Shown here in pieces: positions 33,431 to 43,744 of a DNA stretch of 64,000 nt. This DNA comes from Bradyrhizobium sp. SRS-191 (GTDB lineage: Bacteria; Pseudomonadota; Alphaproteobacteria; Rhizobiales; Xanthobacteraceae), in contig NZ_JANBVS010000002.1 in assembly GCF_024586915.1 (NCBI RefSeq), positions 62,001-126,000 of the forward strand. The letters are read 5' to 3'. Within the stretch, counting starts at the first letter, position 1. Every line of letters begins with the position of its first letter. A program made the translations under genes and the position numbers. Below the pieces are notes generated by a model, which was not told where the DNA came from, did not search any database, and saw nothing but the letters and a program-made list of their open reading frames with translations.

Positions 33431-34774
33431 ATGTTCTCCAACAGCAATCTGACGATCCGCTTCCTCGTGGGGGGCGTCGTGGCCGCGCTCCTGATGCTGC
33501 TGGCGATCGGCGGCGGCACCGGCTTCATTGCGGTGCTCTATCTCAACAACCAGATCACCAGCCTGTCGTCGGACTTCGCCAGCCTCAGCGGCCCGGCGCG
33601 CGACCATGCGACCCTGATTTATCAGCAGGCGCAGTCGGCGTTCTCCTGGTTCCTGATCGCCTGCGTCGCCATCGCGGTGTTCGCCAGCGCGGTCTGCCTG
33701 ATGACCTACGCCGCCGTGCAGAACGGCATTCTGCGTCCGCTCGCTGCGATGGTCTCGGCCATGCGCGACGTCGCCGACCAGAAATACGCCACGCGCATTC
33801 CCGGCCTCGGCCTCTCCAACGAGATCGGGCAGCTCGCCGGCGCGCTGGAGGTGTTCAAGACCAACGGCATCGAGCGCCAGCGCCTCACCGAGCGCGAATT
33901 GCAGGAGGCGCAGCGCCAGGGCGAGCGCTCGCGCTTCCTCGACGGCCGCATCCACTCCTTCAACGAGCTCGTCGCCAGCGTCGTCAGCAGCGTGGCGTCG
34001 TCGGCGGTCCGCCTGAAGAGCAACGCCGAGACGCTGTCGCGCGCCGCCAACGACACCTCGGCGAAGGCGAATGCGGTCGAGGCCGCCGCCAACCACGCCA
34101 ATCGCAGCGTGCAGACGGTGGCGGGCTCCACGGAGGAGATGACCAGCTCGATCGGCACCATCAGCCGCCGCGTCTCCGACGCCACCCAGCGCGCCGAGGG
34201 CGCGGCCTCGCAGGCCGAGAAGAGCAAGAACACCATCCATTCGCTGTCGGATGCCGCCGAGAAGATCGGCACCGTCGTGCAGCTGGTGCAGGCGATCGCC
34301 GCGCAGACCAACCTGCTGGCGCTCAACGCCACCATCGAGGCGGCGCGTGCGGGCGAAGCCGGCAAGGGCTTCTCGGTCGTGGCCTCGGAGGTGAAGAACC
34401 TCGCCGACCAGACCAGCAAGGCGACCGACGAGATCTCGGCCCATGTCGCCAGCATCCAGGGCATCACCGCGGAGACCCGCGGCGCCATCGACGGCATCTC
34501 GACGACGCTCTCCGAGATCAGCGCCATCATGTCCGGCATCGAGGTCGACACCTCGCAGCAGCGCAACGCCACCCAGGACATCTCCAAGAGCGTCCAGGAA
34601 GCCGCCCGCGGCACCCTCGACGTCTCCAACCACATCGCCCAGATCACCTCCACCTCGGCCGAAACCGGCCGCCTCGCCACCGACGCCCGCGACGCCGCCG
34701 GCGATCTCTCGCAGCAGGCCGAGACGCTGAAGCGCGAGGTGGATGCATTCATCGTCAGCGTAAAGGCGAGCTGA
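33431..34774 (+). CDS. Methyl-accepting chemotaxis protein with a short periplasmic loop
   Basis: A 447-residue chemoreceptor. TM1 is about 10-37 and TM2 about 70-95, leaving only about 35 periplasmic residues, far smaller than a usual ligand-binding domain. HAMP follows ([20 protein letters not shown]). The signalling hairpin tip is intact: [22 protein letters not shown] with [18 protein letters not shown]. The C-terminus lacks a CheR/CheB-tethering pentapeptide. With so small a sensor it may respond to membrane or cytoplasmic state, or pair with another protein. A second receptor of different design lies 886 bases downstream. Confidence 0.94.
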
Positions 34775-34867
34775 GGGCAGGCGCGCCGCTCCTCAGCCAG
34801 CCGAATGACGGCGGCGAGAGGCTTCGCCGTCCACCGTCCATCGTCGCGCGACGTCCCCGCCCAGTCC

Positions 34868-35000
34868 TCCGCTGTCGTCCCTGCGAACGCAGGGACCCAT
34901 AACCACAGGGAGAGGTTGTTGTGCGGGATGTGGGACCAGTCATGTCTCACGACAACCGCCGCGGAGTATGGGTCCCTGCGTTCGCAGGGACGACAGCGGA
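34868..35000. repeat. 133-bp palindromic element, copy 1
   Basis: Perfect 34-base terminal inverted repeats (34868-34901 and 34967-35000, starting tccgctgtcgtccctgcgaa) flank a 65-base centre. Each arm also contains its own short hairpin (ctgcgaacgcag). The size and structure suggest a MITE-like or REP-type element with no coding capacity. Confidence 0.88.
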
Positions 35001-35036
35001 GTCTGCCGAGGCCGCTCGCGCGATACGGGCGGAAAG

Positions 35037-35129
35037 TAGGGCGGATGAGCGCAGCGTCATCCGCCATTCCCTCACGATGGACAGCAACTGCCGCGCGGCG
35101 GCTTACGCCTGCGGCTAAGCCGCCCTACA
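35037..35129. repeat. Hairpin repeat element with gtagggcgg ends, copy 1
   Basis: Ends gtagggcgg and ccgccctac are perfect complements, and the interior contains ggatgagcgcagcgtcatcc, itself a hairpin, then gcggcttacgcctgcggctaagccgc. A closely similar 82-bp copy is at 37704-37785, and partial forms occur at 35331-35365 and 40233-40276. Confidence 0.8.
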
Positions 35130-35163
35130 AGCTTTCGTCATGAGGCACGCTCCTACCCAGTCC

Positions 35164-35296
35164 TCCGGCGTCGTCCCGGCGAACGCCGGGACCCATAACC
35201 CCAGGGAGAGGTTGTCGGGCGGGATGTGGGCCCAGTTGTGTCTCACAATAACCGCCGGGGAGTATGGGTCCCTGCGTTCGCAGGGATGACAGCGGA
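35164..35296. repeat. 133-bp palindromic element, copy 2
   Basis: Same length and orientation as copy 1, beginning tccggcgtcgtcccggcgaa and ending with an arm nearly identical to copy 1's right arm. Its left arm has changed to the cggcgaacgccg version, so its two arms no longer match perfectly although each keeps its own small hairpin. Confidence 0.85.
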
Positions 35297-35660
35297 GCAT
35301 GTCGAGGCCGCTCGAGCGACACGTGCAAAGGGGAGGGCGGACGAGCGCAGCGTCATCCGTCATTCCCTCACGACCAACCGCGATTTGCCGTGCGCCGGCA
35401 TATGCCTCCGGCCCAAGCTGCCCAACGATCCCGCATCCCGAGCTGCGACGGTCGACCACGCAACTCATCGCAACTACGTAGCTCCGCAAACGCCATCATC
35501 CCCGGAACTTCACGGGCCTCTCTAACCGGCTATTAGCAAATACCCTTCATCGTGCACATGCTCTGCTGGGAGGAGTCGTCGCGCATGCGGCGGATGCTGT
35601 GCGGGCAGGCGCCGTGACATCGGACGCCCGTTGACCGCACAAGGGAAGGGGCCAACGGGA

Positions 35661-37670
35661 ATGATGAGCTTCGGGTTGAAGATCAGGGGTCGTCTCTACG
35701 CCGGTTTCGCGGCGCTGGTGGCGGTGGGCATGATCATGGCGGCGGTCGCGGTGTGGAATCTCCGCGCCGTCAGCGACCAGGTCGCGAGCATGTCGGCGCT
35801 GTCGGACGCAACCGCGCGCATCCTGCAGATCTCCAACCACCTCCAGGCGATCCAGCGCGCCAACCTGCGCTACATCCACGACGCCAACGAGCCCGCGCTG
35901 AAGGAGGCCGCCGACCGCGAGGCCGCCGCGACCGAGCTGCTGCAGGCCGCCGGCAACGGCCCGCTCTCCGCCGAGCGCCGCAAGGCCTTTGCCGATCTGC
36001 TGACCGACATCGCGCAGATGAAGACGCTGCGCGATCAGTTGCAGGACGCCGTCAGGCAGATCAAGTCCGGCCGCGCCGCGCTGCTGCCGGGCGGCGAGGA
36101 CCTCGCCGCCAAGACCGCCAAGCTCTCGATCTCCGCGCGCATCTCCAAGGAGCCGGAGGTGATGACCGCGGTCGCCGACATCGACACCCGCCTGCAGCTG
36201 GTGCGCATCGCGACCTGGCGCTTCCTGGCGCTGCGCGACGCCAAGGCCGCGTCCGCCTTCCGCGCCGGCGTCGACAATGTCGAGCAGCGCCTCGCCACCT
36301 TGGAGGGCAACTCGCCGCCGGCCAGCGTGCTCGCGGCGATCGCGCCGGTGAAGGCCTCGCTCGACCTCAACAAGAACGCATTCGAGGCCACCGCCGCCGC
36401 GACCTTGAAGTCGGAGGAGGTCTACGCCAACGCGATCGAGCCGCTGATCGCAAGGAGCATCGAGACCCTCAAAGCCGCCGAAGCAAGCATCAACTCCGAC
36501 TATCACGCCGCGCGCACGACCGCGGAAGGCGCGATCGGCCACACCATCTCGTTGCAGATGCAGGTCGGCGCCGCTGCCGTGCTGTTCGGCTGCCTCGTCG
36601 CGTTCCTGATCGCGCGCGGCATCGTCGGCCCGCTCGCCGCGATGACGCGGGCGATGGGGCGGCTGGCGAGCGGCGAGGTCGCCGTCGAGATCCCCGGCCG
36701 CGGCGCCCGTGACGAGATCGGCGCCATGGCCACGGCGATCCAGGTGTTCAAGGACAACATGGCCGAGACCGAGCGCCTCCGTGCCGAGCATGCGGACGCC
36801 GAGGCGCGGCAGGAGCACGCGCGCAAGGCCGACATGGCCCGGCTCGCCCATCAGTTCGAGCAGGCCATAGGCGAGATCATCGATGCGGTGTCGCATGCGT
36901 CCGCCGAGTTAGAGGCCTCCGCCGGCACGCTGACCAGCACCGCCGCGCGCGGCCAGGACCTGTCGACCGAGGTCGCCGCCGCCTCGCAGGAGGCCTCGTC
37001 CAACGTGCAGACGGTGGCCTCCGCCGCCGAGGAGCTGTCCTCTTCAGTGAGCGAGATCTCCCGCCAGGTGCAGGAATCCGCGCGCATCGCCGGCGAAGCC
37101 GTGGCGCAGGCCAACCGCACCAATGAGCGCGTCGGCACGCTGTCGAAGCAGGCCGCGCGCATCGGCGACGTGCTCGAGCTGATCTCGAGCATCGCCGGCC
37201 AGACCAATTTGCTGGCGCTCAACGCCACCATCGAGGCTGCCCGCGCCGGCGAAGCCGGCCGCGGCTTCGCCGTGGTCGCCGCCGAGGTCAAGGCGCTGGC
37301 CGAGCAGACGGCGAAAGCCACCGGCGAGATCGCCCAGCAGGTCTCCGGCATCCAGGCCGCCACCGAGGAGTCGGTCGGCTCGATCCAGGAGATCGGCAAC
37401 ACCATCGGCCGCCTGTCCGAAATCTCCGCCGCCGTCTCCGCCGCCGTGGAAGAGCAGGGCGCCGCCACCCAGGAAATTTCCCGCAACGTCCAACACGCCG
37501 CCAACGGCACTCAGCGCGTCTCGCGCAACATCGACGACGTGCAACGGGGAGCATCGGAGACGGGGTCAGCGTCGGCCCAGGTGCTGACGGCGGCACGTTC
37601 GCTGTCGGCGGAGAGCGGGCGGTTGAAGCGAGAGGTAAGCCGGTTCCTGGGCTCGCTGCAGGCGGCGTGA
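35661..37670 (+). CDS. Methyl-accepting chemotaxis protein with a helical-bundle sensor
   Basis: A 669-residue chemoreceptor; tandem ATGs at 35661/35664 give MMSFGLKIRGRLYAGF. TM1 is about 14-35, a long helical periplasmic sensor spans about 36-295, TM2 about 302-322, then HAMP (GPLAAMTRAMGRLASGEVAVEIP). The signalling tip [20 protein letters not shown] and GRGFAVVAAEVKALAEQT is intact. The C-terminus (FLGSLQAA) lacks a CheR-tether. The sensor is compatible with a four-helix-bundle type (HBM or similar). Two receptors of different classes lie in tandem here without any che genes nearby. Confidence 0.94.
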   Translation: MMSFGLKIRGRLYAGFAALVAVGMIMAAVAVWNLRAVSDQVASMSALSDATARILQISNHLQAIQRANLRYIHDANEPALKEAADREAAATELLQAAGNGPLSAERRKAFADLLTDIAQMKTLRDQLQDAVRQIKSGRAALLPGGEDLAAKTAKLSISARISKEPEVMTAVADIDTRLQLVRIATWRFLALRDAKAASAFRAGVDNVEQRLATLEGNSPPASVLAAIAPVKASLDLNKNAFEATAAATLKSEEVYANAIEPLIARSIETLKAAEASINSDYHAARTTAEGAIGHTISLQMQVGAAAVLFGCLVAFLIARGIVGPLAAMTRAMGRLASGEVAVEIPGRGARDEIGAMATAIQVFKDNMAETERLRAEHADAEARQEHARKADMARLAHQFEQAIGEIIDAVSHASAELEASAGTLTSTAARGQDLSTEVAAASQEASSNVQTVASAAEELSSSVSEISRQVQESARIAGEAVAQANRTNERVGTLSKQAARIGDVLELISSIAGQTNLLALNATIEAARAGEAGRGFAVVAAEVKALAEQTAKATGEIAQQVSGIQAATEESVGSIQEIGNTIGRLSEISAAVSAAVEEQGAATQEISRNVQHAANGTQRVSRNIDDVQRGASETGSASAQVLTAARSLSAESGRLKREVSRFLGSLQAA

Positions 37671-37703
37671 GGCAGGGCGAGGTGTTGCGCTAACCGCCGA
37701 CGC

Positions 37704-37785
37704 GTAGGGCGGATTAGCGCAGCGTAATCCGCCATCCCCGCCCAACAAAGAGCGGCGGCTTACGCCTCCGGCTAAGCCGCCCTAC
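37704..37785. repeat. Hairpin repeat element with gtagggcgg ends, copy 2
   Basis: An 82-bp element with the same gtagggcgg / ccgccctac ends as the 35037 copy. Its internal hairpin has a paired change: ggattagcgcagcgtaatcc here against ggatgagcgcagcgtcatcc there, so G-C became T-A and the stem is preserved. It lies between the second chemoreceptor and the AAA+ ATPase gene. Confidence 0.8.
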
Positions 37786-37812
37786 GGACCGCCGATTGGG
37801 CGGGCCGTCCCT

Positions 37813-37893
37813 GTAGCCCTGATGAGCGCAGCGACATCCGAGTCACACGAGCTTTAGAGATGCCCCCGGATGTCGCTGCGCTCATCCGTGCTA
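37813..37893. repeat. Inverted repeat at the 3' end of the AAA+ gene
   Basis: A perfect 20-bp pair (gatgagcgcagcgacatccg at 37821-37840 and its complement at 37867-37886) encloses 26 bases, with partial gtag.. and ..ctac flanks. It lies six bases beyond the ATPase stop codon, so it can form a strong hairpin at the end of that transcript. The sequence is one I recognise as a common Bradyrhizobium intergenic repeat. Confidence 0.75.
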
Positions 37894-37898
37894 CCCCG

Positions 37899-39176
37899 CT
37901 AGTCACCCGCCGTCGTATTGTGCCGACCCAAATCAATACCCTCGTGGACCGCACGTAAGCGCACATAGCCCCGCATGATATTTTCGCGAAAGGCGTACCA
38001 TCCGGAGCCGAACCCAACGACAATACGGCCGTGCGTATCCTTTCGAAGGGCCAAGTAACGTTGATTAAGTCTATCGCGCGGCAAACGTACACGTGCGCGT
38101 TTGGCTACAATCCACGTGTACGAACTTTCATAGATCTGTGCGATCTGCCGGCTGTCGGCTGTGCTATCAGCAAGCGCCCAAAGCGCATCCTCATAGTCGG
38201 CTGTATTGCGCGTCTTTCGCGTAGCTTTTTCATATTGCGCTCTTAGCATCGCCTCGGTTCGTTGAAGCGCGCCCTCGATTCCTGTCTTGAAGTGGGAGGC
38301 GTTAGATATTGTTACTAGTTCTGGATCGTCGAACATGCTCCAGAATAGGGACTCACCAATCAGGTGAACGTAATGGGGAAAACCGTCGCTGATTTGCCCT
38401 ATCCGAATGAGCGCGTCTCGTTGGATTTTAACTTTAAGCCTGTCAGCAACGACCGTAATAATTTGCCATAGATCACTATGGTTCAAGCGCTCAAGTTTTA
38501 TCGTTTCCAGTATCCTGCCAGCGGAGGCATGTGCCTGTAGAAGCTCCGTAAGGTCATGTCCAATACCGCAGAAGATGAAACGAAGGTTGTCCGGCATCTC
38601 TTGGAGATTCTTGATAAACTCCGCAAATTTTTCTCGCTCATCGGCCGAGCTTACACGCTCCATCTCATCGATGATTACGACTTGCTTCCCTTTGGCGACC
38701 TGAGCCACATAACGAACGATGTCCAACGCCTCGTTGAGCGACTTAGGCGCTTCCATGGAGCCAGTACTGACCGTTGGTCGGGTGAAGCCCACTCCACCAA
38801 TTCCGCCCGGTAGGTTGAAGTTAAAGCCGCCGCCTGTTGCTCGCTCTCCAAGCCGACGCTCCACTGGAACTGTTGCAGCTCCAATCGCATGGATGACTTC
38901 GGCGAAGGTGCTATGTGCACCGCACATTACATGTATCGGTTTTAATGTGCTATCTGTGTGCAGGTTTGCTGCAGTGAGCGCCAATGACGTCTTTCCTACG
39001 CCTCGATCTCCGTGAATGAAGATTTGCCGCCCGGGAGAACTCAGCGCCCGATCGATAGTGCGAAGGTTTTTGGTTCGACCGAACAGCCGCTCCGGCGTTT
39101 GGATTGACTTAGAAGGTGTCAGGTGCTCGGCGAGCAGCTCTTTTAGTAGCTCGTCACTGATGCCGTTAAGCGACAT
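37899..39176 (-). CDS. AAA+ ATPase with Orc1/Cdc6-like domain layout
   Basis: A 425-residue protein. Walker A is GDRGVGKTS at 56-64, Walker B QVVIIDE at 165-171, and a sensor-1-like FIFCGIG at 200-206. A helical lid with DGFPHYVHLIGESLF lies at 264-278, and the C-terminal 95 residues (about 327-420) look like a winged helix (ALWALADSTADSRQIAQIYE, then LNQRYLAL). This order resembles Orc1/Cdc6 and related prokaryotic ATPases (AAA_16 type). Codon use is visibly less GC-rich than its neighbours and it stands alone among dispersed repeats, both pointing to horizontal acquisition. A defence, plasmid or phage origin is possible but not shown by any partner gene. Confidence 0.85.
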   Translation of the reverse strand: MSLNGISDELLKELLAEHLTPSKSIQTPERLFGRTKNLRTIDRALSSPGRQIFIHGDRGVGKTSLALTAANLHTDSTLKPIHVMCGAHSTFAEVIHAIGAATVPVERRLGERATGGGFNFNLPGGIGGVGFTRPTVSTGSMEAPKSLNEALDIVRYVAQVAKGKQVVIIDEMERVSSADEREKFAEFIKNLQEMPDNLRFIFCGIGHDLTELLQAHASAGRILETIKLERLNHSDLWQIITVVADRLKVKIQRDALIRIGQISDGFPHYVHLIGESLFWSMFDDPELVTISNASHFKTGIEGALQRTEAMLRAQYEKATRKTRNTADYEDALWALADSTADSRQIAQIYESSYTWIVAKRARVRLPRDRLNQRYLALRKDTHGRIVVGFGSGWYAFRENIMRGYVRLRAVHEGIDLGRHNTTAGD

Positions 39177-39516
39177 TACGTTCGGCTCCCAGATCTATCC
39201 AGAGGCTAACCTAAAGGCGACTCACACGCATGGCCCATGACTATAGCTGCCTCGCTCTACTCGAGCGCGGCTAGAAGCGAAATTGCTGGATTCCACATAA
39301 TACCGAGCTCACGAAGATCGCTCCCCCAGATCACATCACCTTCCAAATCCGACGAAATATTCCGAAAATCAAAAATCCTCTTGCCTGCCACCCCAAATCA
39401 CCCGTATCTTCCGCCTCGTTCCGTTCCACCGAGGGGGCGTATCGCGATCGTCACGGACGTCGGATGCGGAATGCGATGGACGCGGGCTGCTGCATGCGGG
39501 GCTTTGGCCTCGCCGA

Positions 39517-39775
39517 CGAACGGCGGCGTGCGGACGTGAAATCGTGTGGTCCTGGTCGCCCGGTGCTGCGGCCAAGCCGGCGGGGATGATCCGCCAGGCG
39601 ACGGGGTCAAGAGCCGGTCCCCGGGGAGAGCACGTATAAGCGTTAACACCATCGCACAGGGAGGGCCGGGCGTGTTCGGCCAGACCTGTGGTGACTGCCG
39701 CCTGCTTTTTGTTTGCAGGCGGGCCACGGGCGCGGCCAGCGCCCGGCCTTCCCTGTGCCCTCGCTGTGAGGGTGC
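39517..39775 (+). repeat. Dispersed structured element, copy A
   Basis: About 260 bases matching the reverse complement of 48308-48575. Conserved blocks include gtgaaatcgtgtggtcctg, gtataagcgttaa and acctgtggtgactgccgcc. The core folds as a 16-bp stem (39655-39670 with 39742-39757, one G-T pair) enclosing a second hairpin gcctgc...gcaggc at 39700-39720 whose loop holds TTTTT. It probably belongs to a repeat family spread through Bradyrhizobium genomes; whether it is transcribed is unknown. Confidence 0.75.
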
Positions 39776-39982
39776 GAGTTTGACGGGCATGACTCGGGCG
39801 CGGGATGCGCGGCGAGGATGTGGAGGCGCGACTCAGTGTTGGGTGTGTCCGGCCGCTGTTAGGTGTCTCCAAAGGCTGTTTGACAATGTAGATCGCGATG
39901 TTGTCTCGCGCTTCATCTCCAGCAAGGCGCGCTTCGCTCGCAATGACGCAGCTTGTTGGAGGCGGGGCATTCAACAAACACA

Positions 39983-40140
39983 GTGTCGTCCCGGCGAACG
40001 CCGGGACCCATACCCCAGGGAGCGGTTTGAGGCAGGCTGGTCATTGGCTTTTTCGCCCACATGACGGCTGCGGCGTATGGGTCCCTTATCGGCGCCGTGC
40101 CGCGCTTTGCGCGTCACGGCTTGTCCGGGACGACGACGAT
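39983..40140. repeat. Divergent copy of the 133-bp palindromic element with insertion
   Basis: The left arm gtgtcgtcccggcgaacgcc (39983 onward) matches the left arm of the 35164 copy. The right arm begins tatgggtccct at 40075 but is then interrupted by about 45 bases before gtccgggacgac resumes. The centre is unrelated in length and sequence to the other two copies. Confidence 0.7.
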
Positions 40141-40541
40141 GGGTGCGGCGGCTTGCGCGACAACGGCAGGGGCGGGAAACCGCATGTCGCTTCGCTCATG
40201 CGGGCGACGGGGACGGTGGCTCTGGGGCCGTTGAGGGGTGGCGGGTTACGCCTGCGGCTAACCCGCCCTACGGGAGTTCATACTTTTGGATGGATGGTCA
40301 TAAACATGGCCGGCCTCGGGCACAGGAGAATCCCCCAACCCATTGTCTGGAAATGCCTTTTCCCCGCCGCTCTGCCATCTGCGCCATTCTGCCGCAGTCT
40401 GTGTGTCCGTCCATTACAGAAGTTTAACGCCGCAGCCAGCACGCCGTAAGGCGGCGCGCCCCATGTTCACTGGCGAACGGGGCGAACAGCCCGGGACACA
40501 CGATTTAGACCTTGACCAAAATCACTTGCGGAGAAAACCGT

Positions 40542-42395: not shown

Positions 42396-43076
42396 ATGCG
42401 CCTCCTGATCATCGAAGACGACCGCGAGTCCGCCGACTATCTGGTCAAGGCGTTCCGCGAGGTCGGACATGTCGCAGACCTCGCCAGTGACGGCGAGGAG
42501 GGGCTCGCCATGGCCGAAAGCGGCGATTACGACGTGCTGGTGGTCGACCGCATGCTGCCCAAGCGCGACGGCCTGTCGCTGATCGGCGCGCTGCGCGACA
42601 AGGGCAACCGCTCGCCGGTGTTGATTCTGTCCGCGCTCGGCCAGGTCGATGACCGCATCAAGGGCCTGCGCGCCGGCGGCGACGACTATCTGCCCAAGCC
42701 TTACGCCTTTGCCGAGCTGCTCGCCCGCGTCGAGGTGCTGTCGCGCCGCCATGGCGGGCCGGCTGAGGAGACGACCTACAAGGTCGGCGATCTCGAGCTC
42801 GACCGTCTGTCGCATCGCGTCGCCCGCGGCAAGGACGAATTGACCCTGCAGCCGCGCGAGTTTCGCCTGCTCGAATATCTGATGAAGCATGCGGGGCAGG
42901 TTGTCACGCGCACGATGCTGCTGGAGAACGTCTGGGACTATCACTTCGATCCGCAGACCAACGTGATCGACGTCCACATCTCGCGGCTGCGCTCCAAGAT
43001 CGACAAGGGTTTTGACCGTCCGCTGCTCCACACCATCCGCGGCGCGGGGTACATGATCCGTGACGGGCTTCGCTAG
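42396..43076 (+). CDS. OmpR-family response regulator downstream of degP
   Basis: A 226-residue regulator beginning MRLLIIEDDRESADYLVKAF at the ATG 42396; an in-frame GTG at 42372 would add eight residues and neither has a strong ribosome binding site. Receiver: Asp51 in VVDRMLPKRDG and Lys in DYLPKPYAF. The effector is a winged helix (QPREFRLLEYLMKHAGQVVT, DVHISRLRSKI, IRGAGYMIRD). The probable partner kinase is encoded at 43745, separated by an opposite-strand gene. Being next to degP suggests an envelope-stress role, as with CpxR/RstA-type systems; this is inference. Confidence 0.93.
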   Translation: MRLLIIEDDRESADYLVKAFREVGHVADLASDGEEGLAMAESGDYDVLVVDRMLPKRDGLSLIGALRDKGNRSPVLILSALGQVDDRIKGLRAGGDDYLPKPYAFAELLARVEVLSRRHGGPAEETTYKVGDLELDRLSHRVARGKDELTLQPREFRLLEYLMKHAGQVVTRTMLLENVWDYHFDPQTNVIDVHISRLRSKIDKGFDRPLLHTIRGAGYMIRDGLR

Positions 43077-43128
43077 ACCATGGCGACCGACCGCGGGGTC
43101 GGCCGCCAGCCTCGCTGATCGGAGCGCC

Positions 43129-43500
43129 TTAGCTGGCGCGCGCGAGCTGAGCGTCGGCCGTTTCGGACTTGAGCTGACTGCCGGAGACCATGCCGGCGGC
43201 GTCGACCGTGACCTGGATGTGCAGGATGCCGCTGCCGCTCACCGGCACCGCGACCTGCTGCCCGGTCTGCACATTCTGGAAAAAGATCGTCCAGTTGTTA
43301 TCCCAGACCCACCACTCGCCGGCCGATGTGAGGAGCGCCTGGTCCTTGAAGTTGCCCGTGACGTCCCAGCCGAAGCCCTGGTCGGGGGCGTTGGGCGCGA
43401 AGGCCCAGGAGGCCCAGCCGGTCGGCGTTCCGCCCTTCTTGCCGACGTAGGCCACAGGAGCCGCGGATTGATTGGTGATCTTGTCGATCGTGGTCGTCAT
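43129..43500 (-). CDS. Hypothetical protein wedged inside a two-component locus
   Basis: A 123-residue protein, MTTTIDKITNQSAAPVAYVG, started at 43500 because AAGGGA lies about ten bases upstream; the two-residue longer start is less likely. It is rich in Trp, Gly and Asn (WASWAFAPNAP, GEWWVWDNNWTIFFQ), is beta-rich in pattern, and has no signal peptide, Cys or membrane helix. It is transcribed against its neighbours, between the response regulator and its presumed kinase. I do not recognise the family; the Trp-rich strands recall small lectin-like or pore-forming beta proteins, but that is weak. Confidence 0.7.
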   Translation of the reverse strand: MTTTIDKITNQSAAPVAYVGKKGGTPTGWASWAFAPNAPDQGFGWDVTGNFKDQALLTSAGEWWVWDNNWTIFFQNVQTGQQVAVPVSGSGILHIQVTVDAAGMVSGSQLKSETADAQLARAS

Positions 43501-43744
43501 TCTCAATTCTTCCCTTCTGAAATGATGGTCTGCGACAATGAAGGTCCAACGTTTGCGTCGGACGTGAACTCAGTAGACGTTGGTTCCGGCGCAGTCGGTG
43601 AACCCGTTCACAAAGCCGGCGATCGGCACTTCAAACGTTCGTGAGGCTTGCTATGCACCTTGAGATAGAGAGCGACGCAGGCGGTCCGGTGAAGGAATCC
43701 GGATCGTGGAGCGCCGCGCGCCTCGGCGGGGCGAGGACGTTTCC

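What the first reader, a model, noticed from the sequence alone, without database searches (positions are those of the whole stretch)
37899..39176. Solitary AAA+ ATPase with an Orc1/Cdc6-like layout in a low-GC pocket
Walker A, Walker B, a sensor-like strand, a GFPHYVHLIGE lid and a C-terminal winged helix form the order seen in initiator-type ATPases. The gene is visibly less GC-rich than its surroundings, lacks any partner and is fenced by repeats, the profile of an acquired gene. Stand-alone ATPases of this kind could act in replication control of a lost element or in anti-phage defence. Nothing in the sequence decides between these.
Basis: partly seen in the sequence, partly recalled or inferred. 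Interest (0 to 1): 0.6.

Follow-up and report, generated by a model that had tools for sequence, protein, structure and literature searches.

The report
Phage-borne Orc1/Cdc6-like cargo ATPase
A bacterium has picked up a lone gene for an ATPase built like a DNA-replication initiator; its relatives ride as single cargo genes in temperate phages and plasmids, in several cases at spots where phages keep genes against rival phages, but what it does has not been tested.

Summary
Window 37899-39176 (minus strand) encodes an intact 425-aa AAA+ ATPase with Walker A/B, lid and C-terminal winged helix. The AlphaFold2 model (pLDDT 87.5) matches archaeal ATPase_2 proteins (Z 21.6) and Cdc6/Orc1 (Z 19.5); its C-terminal domain alone matches Orc1 best (Z 10.0). 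The gene looks foreign: GC 52.6% in a 66% window; about 5.6 kb around it are missing at this site in nine relatives examined; genus copies are rare (9 of 265 genomes) and the eight closest are not one clade (AU p 2e-10). The 'fencing' repeats are dispersed palindromes.

The family is PHROG 6841 (function unknown). Copies sit alone in temperate phages and plasmids: in the A-Q defence hotspot of P2-like prophages, between antiterminator Q and lysis genes of lambdoid prophages, in the variable region of mycobacteriophage Kevin1, behind an R-M pair on a plasmid. No gene recurs beside it in more than 6 of 74 loci. The sensor-2 arginine of Orc1/Cdc6 is not seen.

Best reading: mobile cargo in phage/plasmid competition, probably a one-gene DNA-binding defence ATPase. 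This is inference: no known defence model fits, chromosomal neighbours are not clearly defence-enriched, and no bench data exist here.

The parts
37899..39176 (-). AAA+ ATPase gene, 425 aa, member of PHROG 6841
38985..39011 (-). Walker A, residues 56-64 GDRGVGKTS
38739..38870 (-). insert after strand 2, residues 103-146; 114-138 have pLDDT under 50; glycine-rich here and variable in the family
38658..38684 (-). Walker B, residues 165-173 (DE at 170-171)
38514..38531 (-). HxSxxR, residues 216-221; H216, S218, R221 in 58 of 58 rows of A2 and 30 of 30 of A1; candidate arginine finger (inferred)
38352..38384 (-). lid motif GFPHYVHLIGE, residues 265-275; histidine, not arginine, at position 268
37944..38207 (-). 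C-terminal winged helix, residues 324-411; best fold matches are Orc1/Cdc6 winged helices
37692..37894 (.). dispersed palindromic repeats just downstream of the gene (20 and 14 related sites in the genome)
34790..40400 (.). about 5.6 kb present here (second chemoreceptor gene, ATPase, repeats) and absent at this site in nine relatives examined; ends approximate

Best explanation
It is a horizontally acquired, single-gene cargo ('moron') of temperate phages and plasmids: an AAA+ ATPase of the Orc1/Cdc6-STAND kind whose winged helix binds DNA. Shown: sequence family, predicted fold, foreign composition, patchy distribution that is not one clade within the genus, strong purifying selection between related copies, repeated solitary placement at phage cargo sites including the P2 A-Q hotspot. 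Inferred: ATP-dependent oligomerisation (via R221) on DNA through the winged helix, and use of that complex to block replication or another early step of a competing phage or plasmid, i.e. a one-gene defence or superinfection-exclusion factor. In this bacterium it is a stranded or domesticated chromosomal copy with an intact frame.
For: Relatives stand alone in the gap between replication gene A and portal gene Q of P2-like prophages (viral contigs L097, L098, L101, L103, L107), the gap that holds old/tin and several validated anti-phage systems in Rousset 2022 (PMC9122126 section 10). Other copies stand alone between antiterminator Q and holin in lambdoid prophages. Backbones about 93% identical carry other small genes in the same two gaps. 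Of E. coli genomes with any match to the two cargo regions, 4 of 1625 (P2) and 5 of 3929 (lambdoid) cover at least 80% of the region with the gene. Kevin1 gp30 is an 'orpham' in the cluster N variable region, and central genes of cluster N phages are expressed in lysogens and implicated in defence. A copy follows a methylase/BsuBI-PstI REase pair by 32 nt. Lower GC than flanks in 31 of 32 loci. dN/dS 0.02-0.07 in the 5 of 8 pairs where dS was finite. The eight closest genus copies are not one clade.
Against: No defence model fits: the best PADLOC hit of P0001 is partial, 1.4e-5 to PDC-S27. Defence models around chromosomal copies are not clearly above control: at most 6 of 108 ORFs against 3 of 104. 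Among 50,697 annotated phage records only three (two phages) match, and the single-sequence viral scan found none. IMG/VR contigs are predicted prophages and can include host DNA; in L066 the copy lies near a contig end. The Q-to-holin site lies in a late transcription region (recalled biology), so these copies may act in lytic growth. The A-Q gap also carries cargo not known for defence. No separate effector domain is seen. Some plasmid copies lie among transport or other genes with no annotated defence neighbour. No expression or phenotype data.
Confidence: 0.55

Rival explanations
1. Replication or maintenance factor of its carrier (initiator, helicase loader or partition helper), stranded here after loss of the element.
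For: Fold and winged helix are nearest to ATPase_2 and Cdc6/Orc1; 16 plasmid records carry copies; one copy lies next to an AAA/ParB pair.
Against: Several carriers have their own initiators (P2 gene A; Rep proteins); position varies and is away from replication genes in the lambdoid prophages read; closely matching phage backbones lack it; sensor-2 arginine not seen.
Confidence: 0.15
2. Transposition or integration helper ATPase (TnsC/IstB/TniB-like).
For: TnsC is among the fold matches (7UFI Z 15.7, 3.5 A over 270); transposase, resolvase and integrase families are hit among neighbours of chromosomal copies.
Against: No constant transposase partner: an IS1-like transposase (named by eye) recurs beside 4 of 74 loci, all of the distant clade; Pfam TniB only 0.079; ATPase_2 and Orc1 chains rank higher.
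Confidence: 0.07
3. Prophage-encoded modulator of host physiology or of the phage's own late programme, not defence.
For: Lambdoid copies lie between Q and lysis genes in the same orientation; the same gap in another strain carries a small gene of unknown role.
Against: The P2 and cluster N placements are at sites tied to exclusion of other phages; also found on plasmids.
Confidence: 0.2

Closest known systems
PHROG 6841 (phage protein family, function unknown)
   Same: P0001 matches over residues 15-416 at 2.1e-68; 58 of 58 aligned members match
   Different: Nothing: this is the sequence family. It carries no function.
Archaeal/eukaryotic Orc1-Cdc6 initiators (2QBY, 2V1U, 1W5T)
   Same: AAA+ core, lid, C-terminal winged helix in the same order; Z 19.5 whole (2QBY_A, 8.5 A over 328), Z 10.0 for the winged helix alone (2V1U_A, 2.4 A over 87)
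   Different: No sensor-2 arginine seen; only a weak, partial family match (TIGR02928 4.6e-4, residues 27-101, far under its cut-off); sporadic, so not a housekeeping gene
Archaeal ATPase_2 / STAND-like ATPases (2QEN, 2FNA)
   Same: Best whole-chain fold matches, Z 21.6 (6.2 A over 320) and 19.7 (6.7 A over 320); GxP lid motif
   Different: Pfam ATPase_2 29.2 bits, under its 33.2 cut-off
ORC/Cdc6-clade ATPases of defence systems (BrxC, BrxD, SspC, HerA/FtsK capture systems)
   Same: Same ATPase clade used in conflicts with mobile elements (PMC12839542, PMC10853773, passages)
   Different: Those are described as parts of multi-gene systems; this gene has no constant partner
P2 old/tin and other A-Q hotspot systems
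   Same: Same locus, lone cargo, other genes there in a closely matching phage
   Different: No sequence link to old or tin was looked for; activity of this family untested

Membership tests
PHROG 6841 | full-length profile match | tested here: met
   2.1e-68, profile 20-423 of 470; 58 of 58 members match
Orc1/Cdc6 initiator family | AAA+ core plus lid plus C-terminal winged helix | tested here: met
Orc1/Cdc6 initiator family | sensor-2 arginine in the lid (GxxR; motif recalled, position matched by spacing from G265, not by superposition) | tested here: not met
   P0001 has H268; the five commonest residues there in A2 are H22 Y16 N6 S5 F5, 54 of 58 rows, the other four not printed; none of the 30 rows of A1 has R there, read by eye
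Orc1/Cdc6 initiator family | curated family score (TIGR02928) | tested here: not met
   19.1 bits against 181.3
Orc1/Cdc6 initiator family | origin binding and helicase loading | not testable with these tools
   needs experiment
STAND / ATPase_2 | curated Pfam score | tested here: not met
   29.2 against 33.2 bits
STAND / ATPase_2 | same fold as 2QEN/2FNA | tested here: met
   Z 21.6 and 19.7
AAA_16 (Pfam PF13191) | score above gathering cut-off | tested here: met
   39.5 against 32.6 bits; a broad domain, says little on function
PDC-S27 (ATPase + PD-(D/E)XK) | full-length match including nuclease part | tested here: not met
   best stretch residues 140-275 only, 1.4e-5; what PDC-S27 is comes from PMC12988326 passages
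Known anti-phage system | match to a described system | tested here: not met
   PADLOC 2023 and NCBIfam: partial or superfamily-level hits; newer DefenseFinder models not held
Known anti-phage system | protects cells from phage | not testable with these tools
   needs plating assay
TnsC/IstB/TniB helper ATPases | transposase partner | tested here: not met
   no constant partner within three ORFs on either side in 74 loci

The most novel reading that the evidence does not exclude
PHROG 6841 is a widespread one-gene anti-phage system in which an Orc1/Cdc6-like initiator mimic, with no nuclease and no partner, loads on the DNA of a competitor and blocks its replication: an initiator fold turned into a weapon between mobile elements.
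Probability: 0.3. Interest if true: 0.75.

Novelty: new variant of a known kind. Interest (0 to 1): 0.5.

Why it matters
Orc/Cdc6-type ATPases are known inside multi-gene defence systems. A solitary version carried as exchangeable cargo by P2-like, lambdoid and actinobacterial phages and by plasmids would be a compact, easily testable defence candidate in several bacterial phyla, and would show an initiator fold used by itself in conflicts between mobile elements. It also gives a function to test for a PHROG family that has none.

Tried and rejected
PDC-S27 as identity: rejected, partial match and no nuclease region. IetA, mad8, PDC-S59, BrxD and others appear for some members only at weak scores, best 1.2e-9. 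Defence-island clustering on chromosomes: not shown. PADLOC models at 1e-10 hit at most 6 of 108 neighbour ORFs (9 loci; PDC-S35 two proteins; TIR, RT, NERD+UvrD and REase_II one each, if all distinct) against 3 of 104 in nine control regions. I fetched twelve control regions and used nine, and used 9 of the 13 neighbourhoods I listed, leaving out L030, L031, L033, L034 and one ORF of L029 that is a piece of the gene. One McrBC-domain ORF (Pfam) is among the 108, but I did not find out in which locus; a REase_II-like ORF lies in L026. Mobile-element families look commoner near the gene (Resolvase 3, DDE_Tnp_1 3, rve 2, rve_3 2, Phage_integrase 2 of 108) than in control (one transposase and one plasmid initiator among the 25 families shown, 104 ORFs), but both tables are cut (25 of 58 and 25 of 103 families). 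Viral scan with the single sequence found nothing; the alignment gave 77 loci out of 129 stretches, of which L135 and L136 did not pass the profile. For the PHROG tally of direct neighbours I used 92 of 96 ORFs, leaving out three pieces of split family genes (L092, L109, L116) and one ordinary ORF of L116. Sigma-70 promoter scan found none (other promoter types are not covered). Partner search, three ORFs either side, crude ORF calling: groups in three or more of 74 loci are DUF968 (6), P2 terminase (5), P2 portal (4), an IS1-like transposase (4, named by eye), a group that holds a resolvase-type ORF (3), and two unidentified groups of three loci (L070/L090/L115 and L102/L120/L126). BFVD fold search: top rows are mostly clamp loaders and general AAA proteins, TM under 0.5. 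Literature: in the listings I saw no paper on this family's function; the library is open-access only. One passage of Vassallo 2022 (PMC9519451) was seen, no match. The supplement of Rousset 2022, which lists 169 P2-hotspot systems, could not be opened (0 look-ups allowed), so an untested listing there is possible.

Full report
WHAT IS THERE. The open frame at 37899-39176 lies on the minus strand and reads 425 codons from an ATG. Pfam gives AAA_16 (1e-9), AAA_22 and AAA above cut-off, ATPase_2 just under it. NCBIfam, PADLOC and the Protein Data Bank by sequence give only weak or partial, superfamily-level matches. PHROG 6841, a phage family of unknown function, matches residues 15-416 at 2.1e-68.

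STRUCTURE. An AlphaFold2 model from 58 aligned family members has mean pLDDT 87.5 and pTM 0.85; residues 114-138 are under 50. Among the 999 chains re-aligned by VIA-align 2 the best are the archaeal ATPases 2QEN (Z 21.6, 6.2 A over 320) and 2FNA (19.7, 6.7 A over 320), then Cdc6/Orc1 2QBY_A (19.5, 8.5 A over 328) and 1W5T (19.2, 7.4 A over 343); TnsC 7UFI has 15.7 (3.5 A over 270) and the NRC4 resistosome 14.9 (7.6 A over 316). Large rmsd values probably reflect domain angles. The C-terminal domain folded by itself (pLDDT 86.6) has Orc1/Cdc6 winged helices at the top: 2V1U_A Z 10.0 (2.4 A over 87), 2QBY_B 9.8 (2.1 A over 81); other winged helices follow from 8.7 down, so the lead is modest. 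Foldseek alone gives no E under 0.001 for this small domain, with 2QBY_B first at 0.12. Membership is another matter: where Orc1/Cdc6 have the sensor-2 arginine (GxxR, recalled), this protein has histidine, and no arginine is seen in the family as far as printed; TIGR02928 scores 19.1 against a cut-off of 181.3. An HxSxxR motif between strands 4 and 5, invariant in 58 of 58 rows, may supply an arginine finger (inference by position).

FOREIGN ORIGIN. Gene GC is 0.526 in a 0.662 window; the lowest of 44 other gene-like ORFs is 0.629. GC3 is 0.55 against a mean of 0.858, with the caveat that those ORFs were picked by GC3 bias. In nine relatives whose DNA around degP I fetched, the cyc cluster, in six of nine with one chemoreceptor gene after it, is followed by degP within a few hundred bases; the window has about 5.6 kb more there, with a second chemoreceptor gene, the ATPase and repeats. 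Whether chemoreceptor and ATPase came together is not known; the chemoreceptor has host-like GC (0.703) and its 3' part has relatives of about 81% identity elsewhere in other genomes. The flanking palindromes are dispersed: 20 and 14 sites genome-wide, none for the reversed control pattern. In the genus 34 of 265 genomes match at 1e-3; 9 of 265, own included, have a copy at 1e-65 or better, one of them (G191) split in two frames; six more have distant copies at 1e-9 to 1e-16; the rest are weak. In the order 11 of 297 genomes match at 1e-15, own included. In the phylum sample 109 of 398 match PHROG 6841 at 1e-3, but so do 7 of 14 control genomes, and only 11 reach about 1e-16, so the weak hits are mostly general AAA similarity. 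On the tree the label 'this genus' (11 copies) needs at least five gains or losses, and one clade of the eight closer copies is rejected (AU p 2.4e-10; quick tree). dN/dS is 0.02-0.07 in the 5 of 8 pairs with finite dS (two of these have dS near 2); in the three pairs among the window gene and its nearest kin dS is saturated.

WHERE RELATIVES LIVE. Plasmids: 16 records, 13 of them over at least 80% of the query. Annotated phages: three of 50,697 records, namely Kevin1 twice and Cashline. IMG/VR: 77 loci. E. coli, by DNA similarity to one copy only, so more distant copies would be missed: 9 of 5426 genomes. Four match at 90-95%; in the two whose context I read the gene lies in a P2-like prophage between gene A/DinI and portal Q, and 4 genomes cover at least 80% of the DinI-gene-portal query (one of the four was listed). 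Five match at about 66%; in the four whose context I read the gene lies in a lambdoid prophage between antiterminator Q and holin, and 5 genomes cover at least 80% of the Q-to-lysozyme query (one listed). A Salmonella plasmid record that holds P2-like phage genes has the same A-Q placement, and so have viral contigs L097, L098, L101, L103 and L107; L113 and L069 fit in part. These P2 cases are partly related by descent and are not independent trials. In E. coli Ecol_545 and FDAARGOS_1303 flanks about 93% identical carry other small genes in the same two gaps. In the direct-neighbour tally 81 PHROG families are hit by 92 ORFs (one ORF can hit several); portal (4) and Q-like antiterminator (4) families are among the most frequent of the 25 shown. 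In Kevin1 the gene lies between lysis genes and integrase; its describers call it an orpham in the variable region and say that characterising it may bear on immunity (PMC6544188, passages); central genes of cluster N phages are expressed in lysogens and implicated in defence (PMC10700106 passages; see also PMC6426596 passages). On an Acinetobacter indicus plasmid it follows a methylase and a BsuBI/PstI-type endonuclease by 32 nt. Other plasmid settings are mixed: a DUF4238 gene nearby in Clavibacter (a DUF4238 protein gave T7 resistance in Rousset 2022); ArdA, an AAA/ParB pair and a pifC/P-loop NTPase pair within 8 kb in Enterobacter; a protein kinase and an ATP-binding gene upstream in Cupriavidus; no annotated defence gene next to it. 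Two plasmid regions had no annotation.

MECHANISM. Nearly all of the 425 residues are accounted for by AAA+ core, lid, winged helix and a disordered insert, so no separate effector is seen. The most likely action is ATP-dependent assembly on DNA through the winged helix, which hinders replication or establishment of a competing element. Fold (predicted), motifs, mobility, placement and selection are shown; DNA binding, oligomer and target are inferred. Published Orc/Cdc6-clade ATPases in conflict systems (BrxC, BrxD, SspC, HerA/FtsK capture systems; PMC12839542 and PMC10853773, passages) make such use plausible, but they are described with partners.

AGAINST THIS. Chromosomal neighbourhoods do not show a clear defence excess. 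No known-system model fits. The family is rare among annotated phages, and IMG/VR contigs are predicted, with host DNA possible at their ends. The Q-holin site suggests late transcription for those copies. The A-Q hotspot also carries cargo not known for defence (partition genes and a toxin are named in PMC9122126 section 10). So placement alone cannot prove defence.

VERDICT. Observation confirmed; interpretation partly supported and sharpened. New variant of a known kind: a stand-alone, phage-carried Orc1/Cdc6-like ATPase without a visible sensor-2 arginine, function untested.

Noticed in passing
window 33431-37670: Two chemoreceptor genes stand between the cyc cluster and degP; the first is also there in six of nine relatives, the second is at this site in none of the nine.
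   Followed up: partly
window 43060-43644 (+) and 43129-43506 (-): The plus-strand ORF has low GC3 (0.58); an overlapping minus-strand 125-aa frame may be the real gene.
   Followed up: no
L018, L019, L020 and others: Many genus genomes have a frame of about 502 aa that matches P0001 weakly (E near 1e-4); probably another AAA family.
   Followed up: no
L038:9063-12876: N6-methylase, BsuBI/PstI-type endonuclease and a family ATPase run in line on a 13.5-kb Acinetobacter indicus plasmid; the ATPase may be part of that operon.
   Followed up: no
L039:7525-11350: On an Enterobacter conjugative plasmid the family gene follows an AAA ATPase/ParB pair.
   Followed up: no
L030:10504-11385, L031, L032, L100: A 276- to 299-aa IS1-like transposase (named by eye) lies next to four distant family members, on the upstream side.
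   Followed up: partly
L029 (G191), L092, L109, L116: The family gene is split over two frames in these copies, as expected of a dispensable gene; sequencing error not excluded.
   Followed up: no
L170:2581-3867 and L171:2439-2774: Small genes of unknown function occupy the same P2 and lambdoid gaps in place of the ATPase; candidates for other cargo functions.
   Followed up: no
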